Shown here one piece after another: positions 34,060 to 39,185 of a DNA stretch of 64,000 bases. Source of the DNA: Polymorphobacter multimanifer (GTDB lineage Bacteria > Pseudomonadota > Alphaproteobacteria > Sphingomonadales > Sphingomonadaceae); the NCBI RefSeq assembly GCF_014205635.1, contig NZ_JACIIV010000009.1, positions 1-64,000 of the forward strand, read 5' to 3'. Under the pieces are notes generated by a model that did no database searches, was not told the origin of the DNA, and saw nothing but the letters and a program-made list of their open reading frames with translations. Positions within the stretch are counted from its first letter, which is position 1, and every line of letters starts with the position of its first letter. The position numbers were made by a program, and so were the translations under genes.

Positions 34060-35112
34060 TCACTTCTCCGCCTTGGCCTCGATCTCGTTCGCCAGCAGAT
34101 TGTGCCGCTTCATGCAGTGACGCAACTGGTCATAGCTCAGCGCCAGCGCCGTGGCGGTCTTGCGCTGGTTGTGGCGGCAGCGCTCGAGCGCGGCCAGCAG
34201 CACATCGCGTTCATAGCGCATCACCGCAGCGCGCAGATCGGCGATGCTCGCATGGTCCATGGCGGGCATTGCCGAGGCTTGGCCGGTCGGATCGATCTTC
34301 ACCACTGCCTGGCCCGTCCCCGGCAGCGATGCCGGCCGCCACGGGCTTTCGAACGGATCGAGGATGATCCGCCCCACCGGCGTCTCGTCGTCCGCCCAGC
34401 GATAGAGCGAGCGCTCGATCACATTTTTCAGCTCGCGCACATTGCCCGGCCAGTCATGCCCCTCGATCAGCGCCTGCGCCGAGCGCGTGAAGCCGGGGAA
34501 GCGCCGCCAGCCCAGCTCCGCCGCCATCCGCCGCGCAAAATGTTCCGAAAGCGCTGCAATATCCTCCGCTCGCTCGCGCAGCGGCGGCAGCGTCACCACC
34601 TCGAAACTCAGCCGGTCGAGCAGATCGGCGCGGAACCGGCCCTTGTCGACCAGTCGCGGCAGATCCTCGTTGGTCGCCCCCACCAGCCGCACATCGACCC
34701 GCACCGGCTTCGACGAGCCGATCCGCGTCAGCTCGCCATACTCCACGACCCTGAGCAACCGCTCCTGCGCCGCCGCCGACAGCGTGGCGATCTCGTCGAG
34801 GAACAATGTGCCCCCATCGGCATCCTCGAAACGCCCCGAACGTGCCTTTTGTGCCCCCGTGAAGGCCCCCGATTCATAGCCGAACAGCTCGGCGTCGATC
34901 AGATTCTCCGGCAACGCCGCACAATTGAGCGAGATCAACGGCCCGCCCCAGCGCGGCGACAGCCGGTGGAGGCGCTCGGCAATCAGCTCCTTGCCCGTCC
35001 CGCGCTCGCCGATCACCAGCACCGGCCGGTTGAGCGCAGCCGCCGCCGAGGCACGCTCCACCGCATCGAGGAAACTCGAAGATGACCCGATGAGCTGTGC
35101 GGGCGCCTGCAT
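34060..35112 (-). CDS. pspF: Phage-shock sigma-54 activator PspF
   Basis: A 350-residue bacterial enhancer-binding protein. It begins directly with the AAA+ domain, with no receiver domain: Walker A GERGTGKE (about residues 36-43), the sigma-54 contact loop GAFTGA (82-87), Walker B GGTLFLDE (100-107), and a C-terminal Fis-type HTH (KTATALALSYDQLRHCMKRHNL). The start at 35112 (MQAPAQLIGSSSSFLDAVE) aligns with E. coli PspF; the frame is open further upstream only through a TTG. It is divergent from the psp operon and faces its sigma-54 promoter. PspA normally holds PspF inactive. Confidence 0.93.
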   Translation of the reverse strand: MQAPAQLIGSSSSFLDAVERASAAAALNRPVLVIGERGTGKELIAERLHRLSPRWGGPLISLNCAALPENLIDAELFGYESGAFTGAQKARSGRFEDADGGTLFLDEIATLSAAAQERLLRVVEYGELTRIGSSKPVRVDVRLVGATNEDLPRLVDKGRFRADLLDRLSFEVVTLPPLRERAEDIAALSEHFARRMAAELGWRRFPGFTRSAQALIEGHDWPGNVRELKNVIERSLYRWADDETPVGRIILDPFESPWRPASLPGTGQAVVKIDPTGQASAMPAMDHASIADLRAAVMRYERDVLLAALERCRHNQRKTATALALSYDQLRHCMKRHNLLANEIEAKAEK

Positions 35113-35221
35113 GACCGGAGTTAGTGCGATTTCCCAACTATTCGCAAGCTGCAAACCGCCCGAGTGTATTAGTGCCAAAGGATTTCCGGCTTTTCCAGTG
35201 GCTTGGATTTACAGCAAAAAC

Positions 35222-35237
35222 TGGCACGTCTCATGCA
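35222..35237 (+). promoter_or_regulatory. Sigma-54 promoter of the psp operon
   Basis: TGGCACGTCTCATGCA matches the -24/-12 consensus (TGGCAC-N5-TTGC type): GG at -24 and GC at -12 correctly spaced. It lies 53 bp before the first gene of the operon and 110 bp from pspF. The intervening 35113-35221 should hold PspF enhancer sites; none can be called by eye. Confidence 0.85.
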
Positions 35238-35289: not shown

Positions 35290-35448
35290 ATGACCAACCG
35301 CTTCAACCCTCGCGAAATCGCCCGCACCATCGGCGCCACCCTCGCCGCTTTCGTGCTCGGCACCACCTTCATCCTCGCCGCCGCCGGCCCCGCCGAGGCG
35401 CAAATTGTGGAAATCCAGCAGGCTTCGGCTATCATCGGTGGCAAATGA
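35290..35448 (+). CDS. 52-residue exported micropeptide, first gene of the psp operon
   Basis: A small protein with GGAG 9 nt before its ATG, directly downstream of the sigma-54 promoter. Residues 13-32 form a strongly hydrophobic helix (TIGATLAAFVLGTTFILAAA) and PAEAQ offers a signal-peptidase I site, which would release a 15-residue peptide QIVEIQQASAIIGGK. Otherwise it stays as a single-pass protein with a short periplasmic tail. No family is recognised. Being first in a stress operon, it would be the most strongly made product. After it, 35449-35593 (145 bp) has no feature I can name. Confidence 0.75.
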   Translation: MTNRFNPREIARTIGATLAAFVLGTTFILAAAGPAEAQIVEIQQASAIIGGK

Positions 35449-35593
35449 CCTGGTGCCGCTTGTCGGGACCGGCCGGCTGGAACTGACGGGAACCATCCCC
35501 CGCCTTTCCCGCCGGACCGACCCCTTCGCCGGCCACAGGCCCCGGCAGAATCAGGACCGGCAAACCCCCGATCGAAACTGGAGCATCAACACC

Positions 35594-36265
35594 ATGGGCA
35601 TCTTCTCCCGCACCCGCGACATCATCGCCGCCAACGTCACCGACCTTCTCGACAAGGCCGAGGACCCGGCGAAGATGATCCGCATGATCATCATGGAGAT
35701 GGAGGAGACGCTGGTCGAAGTCCGCGCCAGCGCCGCCCGCACCATCGCCGACCAGAAGGAGATGCGCCGCGCCATCATTCGTGCCGAAAAAGCGCAGGGT
35801 GACTGGGGCGAAAAGGCCGAGCTGGCACTGAGCAAGGGCCGCGAGGATCTCGCGCGCGCCGCCCTGGTCGAAAAGTCCAAGGCCCGCTCGTTCGTCGAGC
35901 AGACCGAAGCCGAAGTGTCGGCGCTGGAAGACAGCCTGGCGCTCAACGAAGCCGATATCGCCAAATTGGAAGCCAAGCTGCGCGAAGCCCGCGCCCGCCA
36001 GAACGGCCTGCTCAACCGCATCGAGAGCGCCACCCAGCGCTCCAAGCTGCGCGAGATGATCAAGGGCCCGCGTGTCGACGATGCCTTCGCCCGCTTCGAG
36101 GTGATGGAGCGCCGTGCCGATCTCGCAGAAGGCCGCGCCGATGCGCTGGCACTCGGTGGCCCGGCCCGCACCCTCGCCGACGAATTCGCCGAGCTCTCCG
36201 CCGACGATGAAGTCTCCGCCGAACTCGCCGCCCTCAAGGCGCGCCTCACTGCCCGGGAAGGTTGA
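35594..36265 (+). CDS. pspA: Phage shock protein A
   Basis: A 223-residue coiled-coil protein of the PspA/IM30 (ESCRT-III-like) family. The N-terminal amphipathic helix MGIFSRTRDIIAANV binds stressed membrane; MIRMIIMEMEETLVEVRASAARTIADQK is the classical core. PspA inhibits PspF and polymerises on damaged inner membrane. The start at 35594 is set by the family N-terminus; the open frame upstream is not PspA-like. It lies 6 nt before pspB. Confidence 0.96.
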   Translation: MGIFSRTRDIIAANVTDLLDKAEDPAKMIRMIIMEMEETLVEVRASAARTIADQKEMRRAIIRAEKAQGDWGEKAELALSKGREDLARAALVEKSKARSFVEQTEAEVSALEDSLALNEADIAKLEAKLREARARQNGLLNRIESATQRSKLREMIKGPRVDDAFARFEVMERRADLAEGRADALALGGPARTLADEFAELSADDEVSAELAALKARLTAREG

Positions 36266-36270
36266 TCGCC

Positions 36271-36573
36271 ATGGAAGATTTCTTCACCATCGCCGTCGTT
36301 CTCGGCATCCTGTTCATCGGGCTGCCCTGGCTCGTCCTCCACTATCTCACCCGGTGGAAATCCGGCCAGGGCATAAGCCAGCAGGATGAAGTGCTGCTCG
36401 ACGATCTCCACGAGATGGCGCGCCGCCTCGACGATCGCCTCCACAGCATCGAGCGCATCATCGCCGCCGATGATCCGAACTGGAAAGATGGCCGCCTCGC
36501 CGACAGCGCGTCGAGCAACCGCTCGCGCCTGTCCCCCGCCGACGAGCCGGAAAACCTCCGCCGCCTGCGCTGA
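36271..36573 (+). CDS. pspB: Phage shock protein B-like
   Basis: A 100-residue single-pass protein: a membrane helix at about residues 4-25 (FTIAVVLGILFIGLPWLVLHY), then a cytoplasmic helix ending LHEMARRLDDRLHSIERIIAADDPNW, the hallmark of PspB (a heptad helix followed by D-x-PNW). PspB with PspC releases PspA from PspF under stress. It is longer than E. coli PspB (74 residues) by a Ser/Arg-rich tail. The SIERII segment resembles the motif in the small proteins downstream. Confidence 0.9.
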   Translation: MEDFFTIAVVLGILFIGLPWLVLHYLTRWKSGQGISQQDEVLLDDLHEMARRLDDRLHSIERIIAADDPNWKDGRLADSASSNRSRLSPADEPENLRRLR

Positions 36574-36602
36574 AAAGGCCCATGCATAGAAGGAACGCCA
36601 CC

Positions 36603-36797
36603 ATGACCGTGCCCGCCAAACGCTTCCACCTCGACAAGCCCGCCGCCAAGCTGATGGGCGTCTGCGCCGGCATCGCCAACTACACCGGCATCGATGCCAC
36701 CATCGTCCGCATCGGCTTCGTCATCGGCACCATCTTCGGCTTTGGCTCGCTGCTGCTCATCTACCTGCTGATCGGCTTCCTGGCCCCCAAAGCCTGA
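36603..36797 (+). CDS. pspC: PspC-domain protein, minimal
   Basis: A 64-residue protein that is essentially one PspC domain: FHLDKPAAKLMGVCAGIANYTGIDATIVRIGFVIGTIFG, then a second hydrophobic helix. The ATG at 36603 is preceded by GAAGGAACG; an ATG seven codons earlier is less well placed. PspC senses envelope stress with PspB. A second, longer PspC follows at 36820. Confidence 0.9.
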   Translation: MTVPAKRFHLDKPAAKLMGVCAGIANYTGIDATIVRIGFVIGTIFGFGSLLLIYLLIGFLAPKA

Positions 36798-36819
36798 ACC
36801 AAGAAAAAAGGATCACCTC

Positions 36820-37200
36820 ATGTCCGCCCGCCGCACCAAATTCTATCTCGACAAGCGCAACAAGCGCCTCGCCGGCGTCTGCTCGGGCATCGCCGACTAT
36901 TTCGGCTGGGATCCGCTCTGGGTGCGCGTCGGACTGGTCGCCGCCACGATCATGGGGGTCGGGTTCCTGCCGCTCATCTACCTCGTCATCGCCTTCATGG
37001 CCGAGCCCAAGCCGCTGGCCCTTTATGACGAGAGCGCCGATGATCGACGCTTCTGGACCGGCGTCCGCGTCGCCCCCAAGCGCACCATCCGCGATGTCAA
37101 CGCCGCCTTCCGCGATGCCGATCGCCGGCTGCGCGACATCGAGGCCTATGTCACCACCAACAACAGCAAGCTCGCTCGCGAAATCGAAGACCTGCGCTGA
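36820..37200 (+). CDS. PspC-domain protein with C-terminal coiled-coil tail
   Basis: A 126-residue protein: PspC domain at about residues 4-65 (KFYLDKRNKRLAGVCSGIADYFGWDPLWVRVGLV) followed by a charged cytoplasmic tail ending DIEAYVTTNNSKLAREIEDLR. That ending matches the [LI]-E-x2-x2-[DT]-x4-L-x2-EI-x2-L pattern at the C-terminus of the next four small proteins, which suggests a shared binding surface. It is the second PspC paralogue in the operon. Confidence 0.88.
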   Translation: MSARRTKFYLDKRNKRLAGVCSGIADYFGWDPLWVRVGLVAATIMGVGFLPLIYLVIAFMAEPKPLALYDESADDRRFWTGVRVAPKRTIRDVNAAFRDADRRLRDIEAYVTTNNSKLAREIEDLR

Positions 37201-37227
37201 GCGGTTGCCAACAGGGGAGCACAAACC

Positions 37228-37518
37228 ATGCAATTCGGCGGACCCACCTTCGTCCTTGTCATTATCGCGATGAGCTTCATCGGCTGGATCATCACCACCG
37301 CGATCCGCGCCCGCCACGGTTACCCGATCGAGAATGAATGGGGTGGCACCACCAGCAAGCTCGACAATGACCTCAAGCGCCAGAACGACCTTCTCGAAAG
37401 CGAAAACGAGATGCTGCGTTCCAAGCTCGCCCGGCTCGAAGAGCGCACTGCCGTCCTCGAGCGCATCACCATCGATCCTGCCAACCGGCTGGCCAATCAA
37501 ATCGAGGAGCTGCGCTGA
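37228..37518 (+). CDS. Small membrane coiled-coil protein, psp array member 1
   Basis: A 96-residue protein: membrane helix at about residues 7-26, a short basic/aromatic stretch (RARHGYPIENEWGG), then a heptad coiled coil (LDNDLKRQNDLLESENEMLRSKLARLEER) ending VLERITIDPANRLANQIEEL. A GGGGAG ribosome site precedes it. The build resembles an enlarged PspB. GYPIENEW recurs as GYPLESSW in member 3 (37835), so the two are closest paralogues. Function is unknown; the operon points to envelope stress. Confidence 0.85.
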   Translation: MQFGGPTFVLVIIAMSFIGWIITTAIRARHGYPIENEWGGTTSKLDNDLKRQNDLLESENEMLRSKLARLEERTAVLERITIDPANRLANQIEELR

Positions 37519-37539
37519 GCGCAGCAGGAGGAGAGCCAA

Positions 37540-37824
37540 ATGTCTGACAATATCCGTTACCTCATCCCGCTGTTCGGCATGCTGATCCCCATTGTCGCCA
37601 TCGCCGGGGGCATTTTCACCCAGGTGTTCAAGCGCTGGGCCAGTTTGAAAGAGAAGCAGCTCGAACTCACCGCGCGGCTGACGGCCGAAAACGCCGCCCA
37701 ATATGCCGCCAAGATCGAACGGCTCGAGGCCCATGTCGCGGTGCTCAACCGCATCGTCACCGACCGCAACGAGGGGCTGACAGCGCAGATCGAAAGCCTG
37801 CGCGAAACCCCGAAGATCAATTGA
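37540..37824 (+). CDS. Small membrane coiled-coil protein, psp array member 2
   Basis: A 94-residue protein: N-terminal membrane helix (LIPLFGMLIPIVAIAGGIF), FKRWASLKEKQLE, then a coiled coil (LTAENAAQYAAKIERLEAHV) ending VLNRIVTDRNEGLTAQIESL, the array signature. GGAGGAGAG lies upstream. KRWASLKEKQLELTARL resembles the WLKLRAREMELQKM stretch of member 5. No signal peptide or catalytic residue is seen. Confidence 0.85.
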   Translation: MSDNIRYLIPLFGMLIPIVAIAGGIFTQVFKRWASLKEKQLELTARLTAENAAQYAAKIERLEAHVAVLNRIVTDRNEGLTAQIESLRETPKIN

Positions 37825-37834
37825 GGACCAGACC

Positions 37835-38161
37835 ATGGCCATCGACCCCGCAGTACTCGAAGCCCTTGCCCCGGTCGGCGTCAGCGCCGTCTTCCTCGGC
37901 ACCATGGGCTGGGTGATGACGACCTGGATGCGTGTCAAGAATGGCTATCCGCTCGAATCGAGCTGGGGCAAGCCGATGCTCCCCGCCCGCAGCGCCGAGA
38001 CCGAGGAACGCGTCAAGCTCGTCGCCCAGGAAAACGCCCAGCTCCGTGCCGAGCTTTCCGGGGTGAAGGACCGGCTGGCGGTGCTCGAACGCATCGCCGT
38101 CGATCGCGGGGCCCGGCTCGCCGCCGAGATCGACGCACTCGACACCAAGGCGCTCAACTGA
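37835..38161 (+). CDS. Small membrane coiled-coil protein, psp array member 3
   Basis: A 108-residue protein: membrane helix at about residues 12-32 (PVGVSAVFLGTMGWVMTTW), RVKNGYPLESSWGKP, then a coiled coil (VKLVAQENAQLRAELSGVKDRLA) ending VLERIAVDRGARLAAEIDAL. GAGGACC precedes the ATG, only 10 nt after member 2. The post-membrane GYPxExxW block is shared with member 1. Confidence 0.85.
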   Translation: MAIDPAVLEALAPVGVSAVFLGTMGWVMTTWMRVKNGYPLESSWGKPMLPARSAETEERVKLVAQENAQLRAELSGVKDRLAVLERIAVDRGARLAAEIDALDTKALN

Positions 38162-38194
38162 GCCCATCCGATCGAGAGGGGAGGAATTTCGCCA

Positions 38195-38479
38195 ATGTCC
38201 GTCTACACCATGGTCGTCTTCATCGTGCTCATCGTCACGATCGGCCGCATCTACCAGAGCCGCCAGAAGCTCGCCCTCAAGAACCCGCCGCCCGCCCCGG
38301 ACACGGCGGAAGCCCGACGGCTGCAATCAGAGGTCGCTCGGCTGAACGAACGCATCCAGGTGCTCGAACGCCTCGCCACCGACCCGGCAAAACGCCTTTC
38401 CGACGAAATCGACGGATTGAAGTCACTCCCGCACAAGCCCGCAGCACCCGCACAGGAGACCGACAATGCTCAGCGTTGA
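38195..38479 (+). CDS. Small membrane coiled-coil protein, psp array member 4
   Basis: A 94-residue protein: very short N-terminus, membrane helix (TMVVFIVLIVTIGRIYQSR), a proline-rich hinge (NPPPAPD), then a coiled coil (ARRLQSEVARLNERIQ) ending VLERLATDPAKRLSDEIDGL and a Pro/Ala-rich tail. GGGGAGGA lies upstream. Its last 14 nt overlap the start of member 5. Confidence 0.83.
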   Translation: MSVYTMVVFIVLIVTIGRIYQSRQKLALKNPPPAPDTAEARRLQSEVARLNERIQVLERLATDPAKRLSDEIDGLKSLPHKPAAPAQETDNAQR

Positions 38480-38714
38480 AACCCTTCTCGTTCTCGGTGG
38501 CACAGCGCTCATCGGCATGCTCATCTTCGCCGGCCTTGCCGCCTGGGCCTGGGTGAGCTGGCTCAAGCTTCGGGCGCGCGAAATGGAGCTCCAGAAGATG
38601 CCGGCCAACACCAATACGGGCACCGAACCTGTCATCGGCCAGCGCATAGATCTTGCCGACCTCAAGGAGCGGGTCCGCAAGCTCGAAGCCATCGCCTCGG
38701 GCGTGGACTTCTGA
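38466..38714 (+). CDS. Small membrane protein, psp array member 5 (divergent)
   Basis: An 82-residue protein: membrane helix at about residues 7-30 (LVLGGTALIGMLIFAGLAAWAWV), WLKLRAREMELQKM, a polar linker, and a short ending DLKERVRKLEAIASGVDF. It ends before the full array signature, keeping only the KLEAI part. AGGAGA within member 4 serves as its ribosome site. It is the last gene of the array; no intrinsic terminator was seen in 38715-38771. Confidence 0.8.
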   Translation: MLSVETLLVLGGTALIGMLIFAGLAAWAWVSWLKLRAREMELQKMPANTNTGTEPVIGQRIDLADLKERVRKLEAIASGVDF

Positions 38715-38771: not shown

Positions 38772-39185
38772 ATGCCGATTGCCACTTTTGATGATGTCGA
38801 GGCCGAATTCGAAGCCTTTGACGATTGGGACGACCGCTACCGCTTGCTGATCCAGCTCGGCCGCGACCTCGCGCCGATGCCCGAAGCCCTCAAGACCGAC
38901 GCAACCAAGGTGCGCGGTTGCGCCAGCCAGGTCTGGCTCCACGCCACCCGCGACGACCAGGGCCCCGGGGAAACCCTCCACTTCACCGCCGATTCCGATG
39001 CCGCCATCGTCAAGGGACTGGTGGCGCTGGTGCTGATGCTCGTCAACGATCGCCCCGCTGCCGAAATCGACCCCGCCGGCATCCGCGCCCGGCTCGACAG
39101 CCTCGGCCTCGCCCGCCACCTCAGCTCCAACCGCACCCAGGGACTTGCCTCGATGGTTGCGCGAATCGGCGACCTGTCGGCATGA
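38772..39185 (+). CDS. sufE: SufE-family sulfur acceptor
   Basis: A 137-residue protein that accepts persulfide sulfur from a cysteine desulfurase for Fe-S cluster assembly. The key motif KVRGCASQVW holds the acceptor cysteine (about residue 51), with DDRYRLLIQLGRDL before it and SSNRTQGLASMVARI at the end. The start at 38772 (MPIATFDDVEAEF) fits the family; a GTG three codons earlier is possible. The stop overlaps the next gene (ATGA). The suf operon itself is not nearby. Confidence 0.93.
   Translation: MPIATFDDVEAEFEAFDDWDDRYRLLIQLGRDLAPMPEALKTDATKVRGCASQVWLHATRDDQGPGETLHFTADSDAAIVKGLVALVLMLVNDRPAAEIDPAGIRARLDSLGLARHLSSNRTQGLASMVARIGDLSA

What the first reader, a model, noticed from the sequence alone, without database searches (positions are those of the whole stretch)
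35290..38714. Expanded phage-shock operon with five tandem membrane coiled-coil paralogues sharing a C-terminal signature
Downstream of pspA, pspB and two pspC genes lie five consecutive small genes (82-108 residues). Each has one N-terminal membrane helix followed by a coiled coil, and each has its own strong ribosome site. Four end with the same pattern: LERI (or LNRI/LERL), two residues, Asp, four residues, Leu, two residues, Glu/Gln-Ile, two residues, Leu. The tail of the second PspC (ending LAREIEDLR) carries it too, and PspB has a related SIERII segment. This is seen directly. Inference: a family of PspB-like adaptors or scaffold subunits that dock on a common partner (PspA, PspC or each other) in an extended envelope-stress complex. 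I know of no description of such a fivefold array.
Basis: partly seen in the sequence, partly recalled or inferred. Interest (0 to 1): 0.78.

Follow-up and report, generated by a model that had tools for sequence, protein, structure and literature searches.

The report
Membrane stress operon with paralogue array
A bacterial membrane-stress operon carries five extra small membrane genes that share one kind of tail, are kept in several copies across a whole family of bacteria, and belong to an unnamed protein family that seems to travel with this stress system.

Summary
A complete pspF–pspA-B-C-C operon is followed by five tightly packed genes (X1–X5). X1–X4 carry the stated tail exactly; it occurs nowhere else in six frames of the window, and their profile finds nothing else in the genome at E≤10. 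X5 is a shorter relative. Of 140 sphingomonad loci picked for an X1-like gene, 139 could be annotated; all hold 2–7 such genes after pspC. Heads differ between paralogues (21% identity), tails less (47%).

The family is wider than the operon: one or two copies, mostly away from psp, occur in sister families and in another class (presumably Gammaproteobacteria). In 398 Pseudomonadota genomes, 46 of 46 with a strong match also have PspA, against 76 of 398 overall. It is homologous to PspB and the PspC tail, but PspB forms its own clade (100/99.9, seven long rows left out) and the window's genes fail the PspB cut-offs: an unnamed sister family of PspB, expanded in sphingomonads. 'PspB duplicates' in psp operons and a PspB-like PspC tail are already in print.

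Likely role, inferred: different membrane heads feed one docking tail that adjusts the PspC–PspA–PspF switch. No interaction was tested.

The parts
34063..35178 (-). pspF, sigma54 enhancer-binding activator
   Evidence: TIGR02974 above cut-off
35222..35237 (+). sigma54-type promoter TGGCACGTCTCATGCA (11 of 12 informative positions; consensus recalled)
   Evidence: a site scoring 10 or more lies upstream of pspA in 115 of 139 loci (24 have none), and no array-internal site reaches 11 in 139
35290..35448 (+). leader small ORF (52 aa, signal-anchor-like, ...ILAAAGPAEA...)
   Evidence: a similar ORF upstream of pspA in 34 of 138 loci by a strict pattern
35594..36265 (+). pspA
   Evidence: TIGR02977 above cut-off
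36271..36573 (+). pspB
   Evidence: TIGR02976 and PF06667 above cut-off
36603..36797 (+). short pspC (pspC1), PspC domain without the C-terminal tail
   Evidence: PF04024 above cut-off; labelled in 13 of 139 loci
36820..37200 (+). full pspC (pspC2); tail IEAYVTTNNSKLAREIEDL is the loose form of the shared pattern
   Evidence: TIGR02978 above cut-off
37228..37518 (+). X1, 96 aa: membrane helix, HGYPIENEWGG juxtamembrane motif, helical tail LERITIDPANRLANQIEELR
37540..37824 (+). X2, 94 aa, tail LNRIVTDRNEGLTAQIESLR
37835..38161 (+). X3, 108 aa, closest to X1 (NGYPLESSWG motif), tail LERIAVDRGARLAAEIDALD
38195..38479 (+). X4, 94 aa, the only one of the five that touches the PspB models, tail LERLATDPAKRLSDEIDGLK
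38466..38714 (+). X5, 82 aa, short-tailed member (ADLKERVRKLEAIASGVDF)
   Evidence: overlaps X4 by 14 nt
38772..39185 (+). sufE-like gene, the usual downstream boundary of the array
   Evidence: a relative of this ORF follows the array in 112 of 139 loci; named SufE family in an annotated record

Best explanation
X1-X5 are paralogues of an unnamed family of small single-span membrane proteins, sister to PspB, that is expanded inside the sphingomonad psp operon. Each paralogue has its own membrane/juxtamembrane head and the common helical tail that PspB and PspC also use. Shown: gene relations, conservation, gene linkage, a sigma54-type site ahead of pspA, co-occurrence with PspA, and the head/tail difference in conservation. 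Inferred: after PspF-sigma54 induction the proteins insert with the tail in the cytoplasm and form mixed bundles with PspB and PspC through the tail. In this way several different membrane inputs (heads) converge on one output, the PspC tail's grip on PspA and so the PspA-PspF inhibitory complex, or on the membrane anchoring of PspA.
For: Relatedness: X1 finds X3 and X4 in its own genome by single-sequence search (E 4e-14 and 5.5e-5; X2 only 0.23). Profile comparison gives 99.0-100% for all pairs of X1-X4, 53-96% for X5 with the others, 58-95% of X1-X4 with PspB, 90-95% with PspC2, and at most 11.2% for reversed controls. Independent check: with profile A4 (window X4 plus 20 outside members), 18 places lie between E 4.8e-5 and 9e-4; 8 are pspB genes and 2 pspC genes directly behind pspA, confirmed by PspB, PspC and PspA profiles; 2 lie at the X5 position, 2 are array genes, 2 are second orphan copies, and 2 are soluble-looking coiled-coil frames without psp neighbours in the stretch fetched. 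Curated models: 12 of 21 A4 members touch the PspC model and 10 of 21 the PspB model at E<=0.01; no family other than PspB/PspC models is hit by more than 2.
Conservation: 139 of 139 annotated loci have 2-7 X genes (2:1, 3:7, 4:52, 5:49, 6:21, 7:9; loci picked for an X1-like gene). In the order sample, all 64 listed genomes of the family have 2-7 profile matches.
Transcription unit: median X-X spacing 21 nt, 502 of 526 at most 60 nt; a sigma54-type site ahead of pspA in 115 of 139.
Common tail, different heads: identity between paralogues 21% in heads and 47% in tails; within orthologues 47% and 64%.
System link: 46 of 46 genomes with a match at E<=1e-6 have PspA over its cut-off, against 76 of 398 in the sample.
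[quoted passage not shown] PspB self-associates and binds PspC (abstract and passages of PMC3068692).
Against: No interaction, expression or phenotype was tested. In E. coli, PspB-PspC contact was reported to be independent of both leucine zippers (passage of PMC3068692), which speaks against the tail being the only contact. Orphan members are mostly not beside psp, so the family may have a wider role (some sit by rpoD-like or flagellin-like genes). X5 lacks the second half of the tail and does not match PspB or PspC2 in profile comparison (0.2% and 0.5%). X2 heads are poorly conserved even among orthologues (30%). The paralogue sets were built by best match to the window's genes and may be mixed, which would inflate X1-X4 similarity. 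The tail region was chosen with the pattern already known.
Confidence: 0.5

Rival explanations
1. Effector scaffold rather than signal input: the array proteins are induced membrane anchors that spread PspA (an ESCRT-III-like protein) over damaged membrane or clamp proton leaks, with little role in regulation.
For: They lie downstream of the regulators in the operon, copy number varies 2-7 without a fixed set, and one paralogue, X2, has poorly conserved heads (30%).
Against: The tail is shared with PspB and PspC, which are described as signalling units (passages of PMC9239133); the heads of X1, X3 and X4 are conserved at 49-57% among orthologues, which a generic anchor would not need.
Confidence: 0.3
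2. Plain in-operon duplication of pspB followed by drift: X1-X5 are PspB copies with no separate role.
For: Homology to PspB; a published mention of PspB duplicates in psp operons (PMC11237479); the tree does not reject PspB plus array genes as one group against the orphans (p-AU 0.46).
Against: PspB proteins are one clade of 18 rows against 81 others (100/99.9, seven long-branch rows left out); X3 and X5 are well supported clades across the family (100/100 and 100/99); the window's X genes fail the PspB cut-offs.
Confidence: 0.12
3. Generic small membrane coiled-coil proteins linked to psp only by position (for example cell-division or secretion adaptors carried in the same operon).
For: Some members touch bZIP, ZapB, FtsL or DivIC models weakly; in Pfam, bZIP_1 ties with PspB at 4 of 41 members. 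Orphans lie in varied neighbourhoods.
Against: In NCBIfam the PspC and PspB models lead with 7 and 6 of 41, and with 12 and 10 of 21 for the mostly orphan set; the profile is specific in the genome; strong matches occur only in PspA-bearing genomes of the sample.
Confidence: 0.08

Closest known systems
PspB (TIGR02976 / PF06667)
   Same: N-terminal membrane helix, helical tail with R-[IL]-x-x-[LVI]-E-x-[IV], psp operon; homologous by profile
   Different: Outside the PspB clade, window genes below PspB cut-offs, no PW-x-x-x-HY head or P-x-[WF] end of PspB (consensus sequences), and an extra C-terminal segment L-x-x-[EQ]-I-x-x-L in X1-X4
C-terminal tail of PspC (TIGR02978)
   Same: Tail pattern ...E-x-[YI]-x-T-[SD]-x4-L-x-x-E-[IF]-x-x-L
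   Different: No PspC membrane domain; one membrane helix only
PspB duplicates and PspC-PspB fusions (Ravi et al. 2024, PMC11237479; section 17 read whole, other passages; tables, supplements and web app not seen)
   Same: Extra PspB-like genes in psp operons and a divergent PspB at the PspC C-terminus are already noted there
   Different: What I saw does not describe arrays of 2-7, the paralogue families, the tail, the orphan members or the PspA co-occurrence. The organism behind their example AOL22920.1 was not checked.
PspD / PspG accessory proteins of enterobacteria (named in PMC9239133 passages)
   Same: Lineage-limited accessories of the Psp response
   Different: No sequence relation was tested here

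Membership tests
PspB | passes the curated PspB models | tested here: not met
   X4 best: 21.1 bits against 51.7 and 17.1 against 25.6; X1, X2, X3 and X5 not listed for PspB at E<=1 or E<=10 in NCBIfam. Among 41 relatives the best E-values are 2.5e-6 and 0.0027 (their bits are not shown)
PspB | groups inside the PspB clade | tested here: not met
   18 PspB rows one side of a branch against 81 others, 100/99.9 (7 long rows dropped, two of them PspB or PspB-like); in the full set of 106 rows the same split had 91/92
PspB | homology to PspB | tested here: met
   with 81, 55, 56 (X5 only indirectly)
PspB | one N-terminal membrane helix plus cytoplasmic helix | tested here: inconclusive
   helix layout of X1 fits; topology not measured
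PspB | binds PspC and modulates PspA-PspF | not testable with these tools
   no binding or expression assay
PspC | PspC membrane domain (PF04024) | tested here: not met
   no PF04024 match for X1-X5 at E<=1
Psp regulon (pspF-pspA operon) | same transcription unit under a sigma54 promoter | tested here: inconclusive
   spacing and promoter pattern fit; no transcript data

The most novel reading that the evidence does not exclude
An overlooked further component of the proteobacterial Psp system: a PspB-sister family present as orphan genes in PspA-bearing Alphaproteobacteria and another class (presumably Gammaproteobacteria), and amplified in sphingomonads into a modular array in which different membrane-sensing heads compete through one shared PspB/PspC docking tail for the PspA-PspF switch.
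Probability: 0.4. Interest if true: 0.72.

Novelty: new variant of a known kind. Interest (0 to 1): 0.55.

Why it matters
How PspB and PspC sense so many different membrane insults is, to my knowledge, an open question in the Psp field. A lineage that keeps 2-7 natural variants with different heads and one tail offers a ready-made dissection: deleting or swapping single heads in a harmless Sphingobium would show whether heads set the input. It also gives a common identity to genes that a public record labels 'hypothetical protein', and a candidate accessory to look for in other PspA-bearing proteobacteria.

Tried and rejected
Rejected: chance coiled-coil resemblance (reversed-profile controls, shuffles and the genome-wide scan all negative). 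Rejected: species-specific expansion. Weakened but not excluded: simple pspB duplication; the test of PspB plus array genes as one group against the orphans was not rejected (p-AU 0.46), so whether orphans seeded the array or the reverse is open.

Led nowhere or weak: PDB sequence search with the family profile gave only generic coiled-coil matches (best E 0.011), and the window's PspB gave none. The sigma70 scan found one weak site at 35408-35435, inside the leader ORF, and the terminator scan was near chance (5 found, 3.6 expected). Sigma54-like sites (10 or more of 12) upstream of orphan genes: 4 of 30 in the first set (21 alphaproteobacterial; random-window control 3.6%) and 9 of 30 genes in the other-class set (control 4.5%; 9 loci shared between the two sets); the control windows include coding DNA, so this is only a lead. 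Co-folding of several proteins was not tried, since the tool reports no contacts; fold comparison of the X1 model was not run because of its low pTM. Of 4 papers found for PspB paralog/PspB-like/PspB homolog/duplicate one more passage was opened and is unrelated (PMC3482391); PMC2121137 and PMC5430205 were seen in the listing only.

In one search, 31 of 149 family genomes had no single-sequence match; two of these (G040, G060) show 2 and 3 matches with the profile. In one search, 22 of 385 class genomes matched: 5 of the window's family (the window's own included), one with two true members (G329), five with psp operons whose PspB, extra PspB-like gene or PspC was hit (L180, L182, L185, L186, L192), and 11 with frames of 151-705 aa in which no psp gene was recognised. 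The tree set was a hand-picked 106 rows; 7 rows flagged as long were removed.
Full report
What is there. The window carries a complete proteobacterial psp locus: pspF on the minus strand and pspA, pspB, a short pspC and a full pspC on the plus strand, all over curated cut-offs. Five small genes follow at 37228-38714 with spacings of 27, 21, 10, 33 and -14 nt, then a sufE-like gene. A sigma54-type promoter (11 of 12 positions) lies at 35222-35237 between pspF and pspA; five gaps tested between pspB and sufE give at most 7.

The tail is real. A profile of 41 X1-X4 sequences finds only these four genes in the whole genome at E<=10. X5 keeps only the first half of the tail, but has a strongly conserved one of its own (17 aligned rows).

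They are paralogues related to PspB and PspC. Single-sequence search with X1 finds X3 and X4 significantly, X2 only weakly. Profile comparison links all pairs of X1-X4 at 99.0-100%, X5 with the others at 53-96%, X1-X4 with PspB at 58-95% and with PspC2 at 90-95%, against at most 11.2% for reversed controls; X5 with PspB or PspC2 gave nothing, and PspB with PspC2 only 23%. The sets used there were assigned by best match to the window's genes, so I looked for a test free of that. A profile of 20 outside members plus the window's X4 (A4), run over 398 Pseudomonadota genomes, gives 18 places between E 4.8e-5 and 9e-4. Eight are pspB and two are pspC genes directly behind pspA, confirmed on the fetched DNA with PspA, PspB and PspC profiles. 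Two lie at the X5 position, two are array genes, two are second orphan copies, and two are coiled-coil frames without psp neighbours. Among 21 A4 members, 12 touch the PspC model and 10 the PspB model.

They are not PspB in the strict sense. None of the window's five passes the PspB cut-offs; only X4 is listed at all. In a tree of 99 rows all 18 PspB proteins are one side of a branch with support 100/99.9; before seven long rows were removed the same split had 91/92. X3 and X5 are well supported clades across the family (100/100 and 100/99), and X1 with X3 forms a group (94/93). Whether the array came from orphans or from in-operon genes is unresolved (p-AU 0.46).

The array is a family trait. 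These loci were chosen for holding an X1-like gene and at least seven pairs are duplicates. A broader view is the order sample: 120 of 147 genomes match; the 64 listed genomes of the window's family all have 2-7 matches and the 56 matching genomes of other families 1 or 2. None of the 20 listed non-matching genomes is of the window's family; seven more are not listed. A common order elsewhere is X1-X3-X2-X4-X5; the window's nearest relatives have X1-X2-X3-X4-X5.

The family reaches beyond psp. In one sister family of the order one form sits at the end of a pspF/ABC operon behind a tail-less PspC (L228, L230, L234) and another directly behind what reads as rpoD (L227, L229, L235); in other families the genes stand alone, four of them near flagellin-like genes (neighbours named by eye). 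In another class, presumably Gammaproteobacteria, the genes are orphans, once in tandem. By coordinates, the strong places in the 27 matching genomes outside the window's family lie about 80 kb or more from PspA or on another contig. Yet in what appears to be the same set of 398 genomes all 46 with a match at E<=1e-6 have PspA over its cut-off, while only 76 of 398 genomes do. These are my counts from the two tables. Nothing here is corrected for ancestry, and 19 of the 46 are of the window's family.

How it may work. Between paralogues, heads share 21% identity and tails 47%; within orthologues 47% and 64%, with X2 heads the exception at 30% (14 loci, X1-X4). I read this as different inputs with one shared output. 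In Yersinia and E. coli PspB and PspC form the inner-membrane switch, and the PspC C-terminal domain binds PspA in the on state and frees PspF (passages of PMC5596341 and PMC3068692). The simplest reading is that X proteins are extra inputs or competitors at this tail-mediated switch. Against a simple tail-to-tail picture, PspB-PspC contact in E. coli was reported independent of their zippers. An effector-scaffold role is the main rival. The AlphaFold model of X1 supports only the layout: membrane helix, loop, long helix.

What is known. Ravi et al. 2024 (PMC11237479; section 17 whole and passages) mention PspB duplicates in the operon and PspC with a divergent C-terminal PspB; no word beginning sphingomon- occurs in its main text, and tables and supplements were not seen. 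The survey PMC9239133 (passages only) has no such word either. Searches for psp operon with Sphingomonas and PspB (0 papers), for PspB paralog/PspB-like/PspB homolog/duplicate (4 papers) and for phage shock with Sphingomonadales (10 of 109 listed, ranked by number of terms held, none with the order's name) gave no description of such an array; the library holds only open-licence papers. In one annotated public record the array genes and the leader ORF are 'hypothetical protein'.

Verdict.

Noticed in passing
window 35290-35448: A 52-aa leader ORF between the sigma54-type promoter and pspA with a signal-anchor and AxA-like end (ILAAAGPAEA); similar small ORFs (LFGSTMILSAVGPARAS...) precede pspA in 34 of 138 sphingomonad loci by a strict pattern. 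A small ORF at the same place is 'hypothetical protein' in one record.
   Followed up: partly
L227:3908-4177, L229:3896-4165, L235:3712-3981: In one sister family of the order an orphan X gene lies directly downstream of what reads as rpoD; a second copy ends the psp operon and is followed by what reads as an L,D-transpeptidase gene (neighbours named by eye).
   Followed up: no
L233, L239, L245, L246: Orphan X genes sit near flagellin-like genes in another sister family (named by eye).
   Followed up: no
L261, L272, L273, L275, L276, L283, L284, L288, L291: Sigma54-type sites (10 or more of 12) upstream of orphan X genes in 9 of 30 cases from another class against 4.5% in random windows; may mean PspF control, as for pspG in E. 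coli, but the control is crude.
   Followed up: partly
window 36603-36797: A tail-less second PspC is labelled in 13 of 139 loci, and also occurs beside X genes in a sister family.
   Followed up: no
L180:1467-1692, L182:1473-1695: In two other alphaproteobacterial genomes of one family an extra PspB-like gene lies between a short and a full pspC.
   Followed up: no
L139: A record titled Bacillus sp. 2B10 carries a sphingomonad-type psp array: probably a misnamed or contaminated assembly.
   Followed up: no
L297: In Sphingomonas parapaucimobilis YK209 the psp array and ftsY lie on an 880-kb replicon deposited as a plasmid.
   Followed up: no
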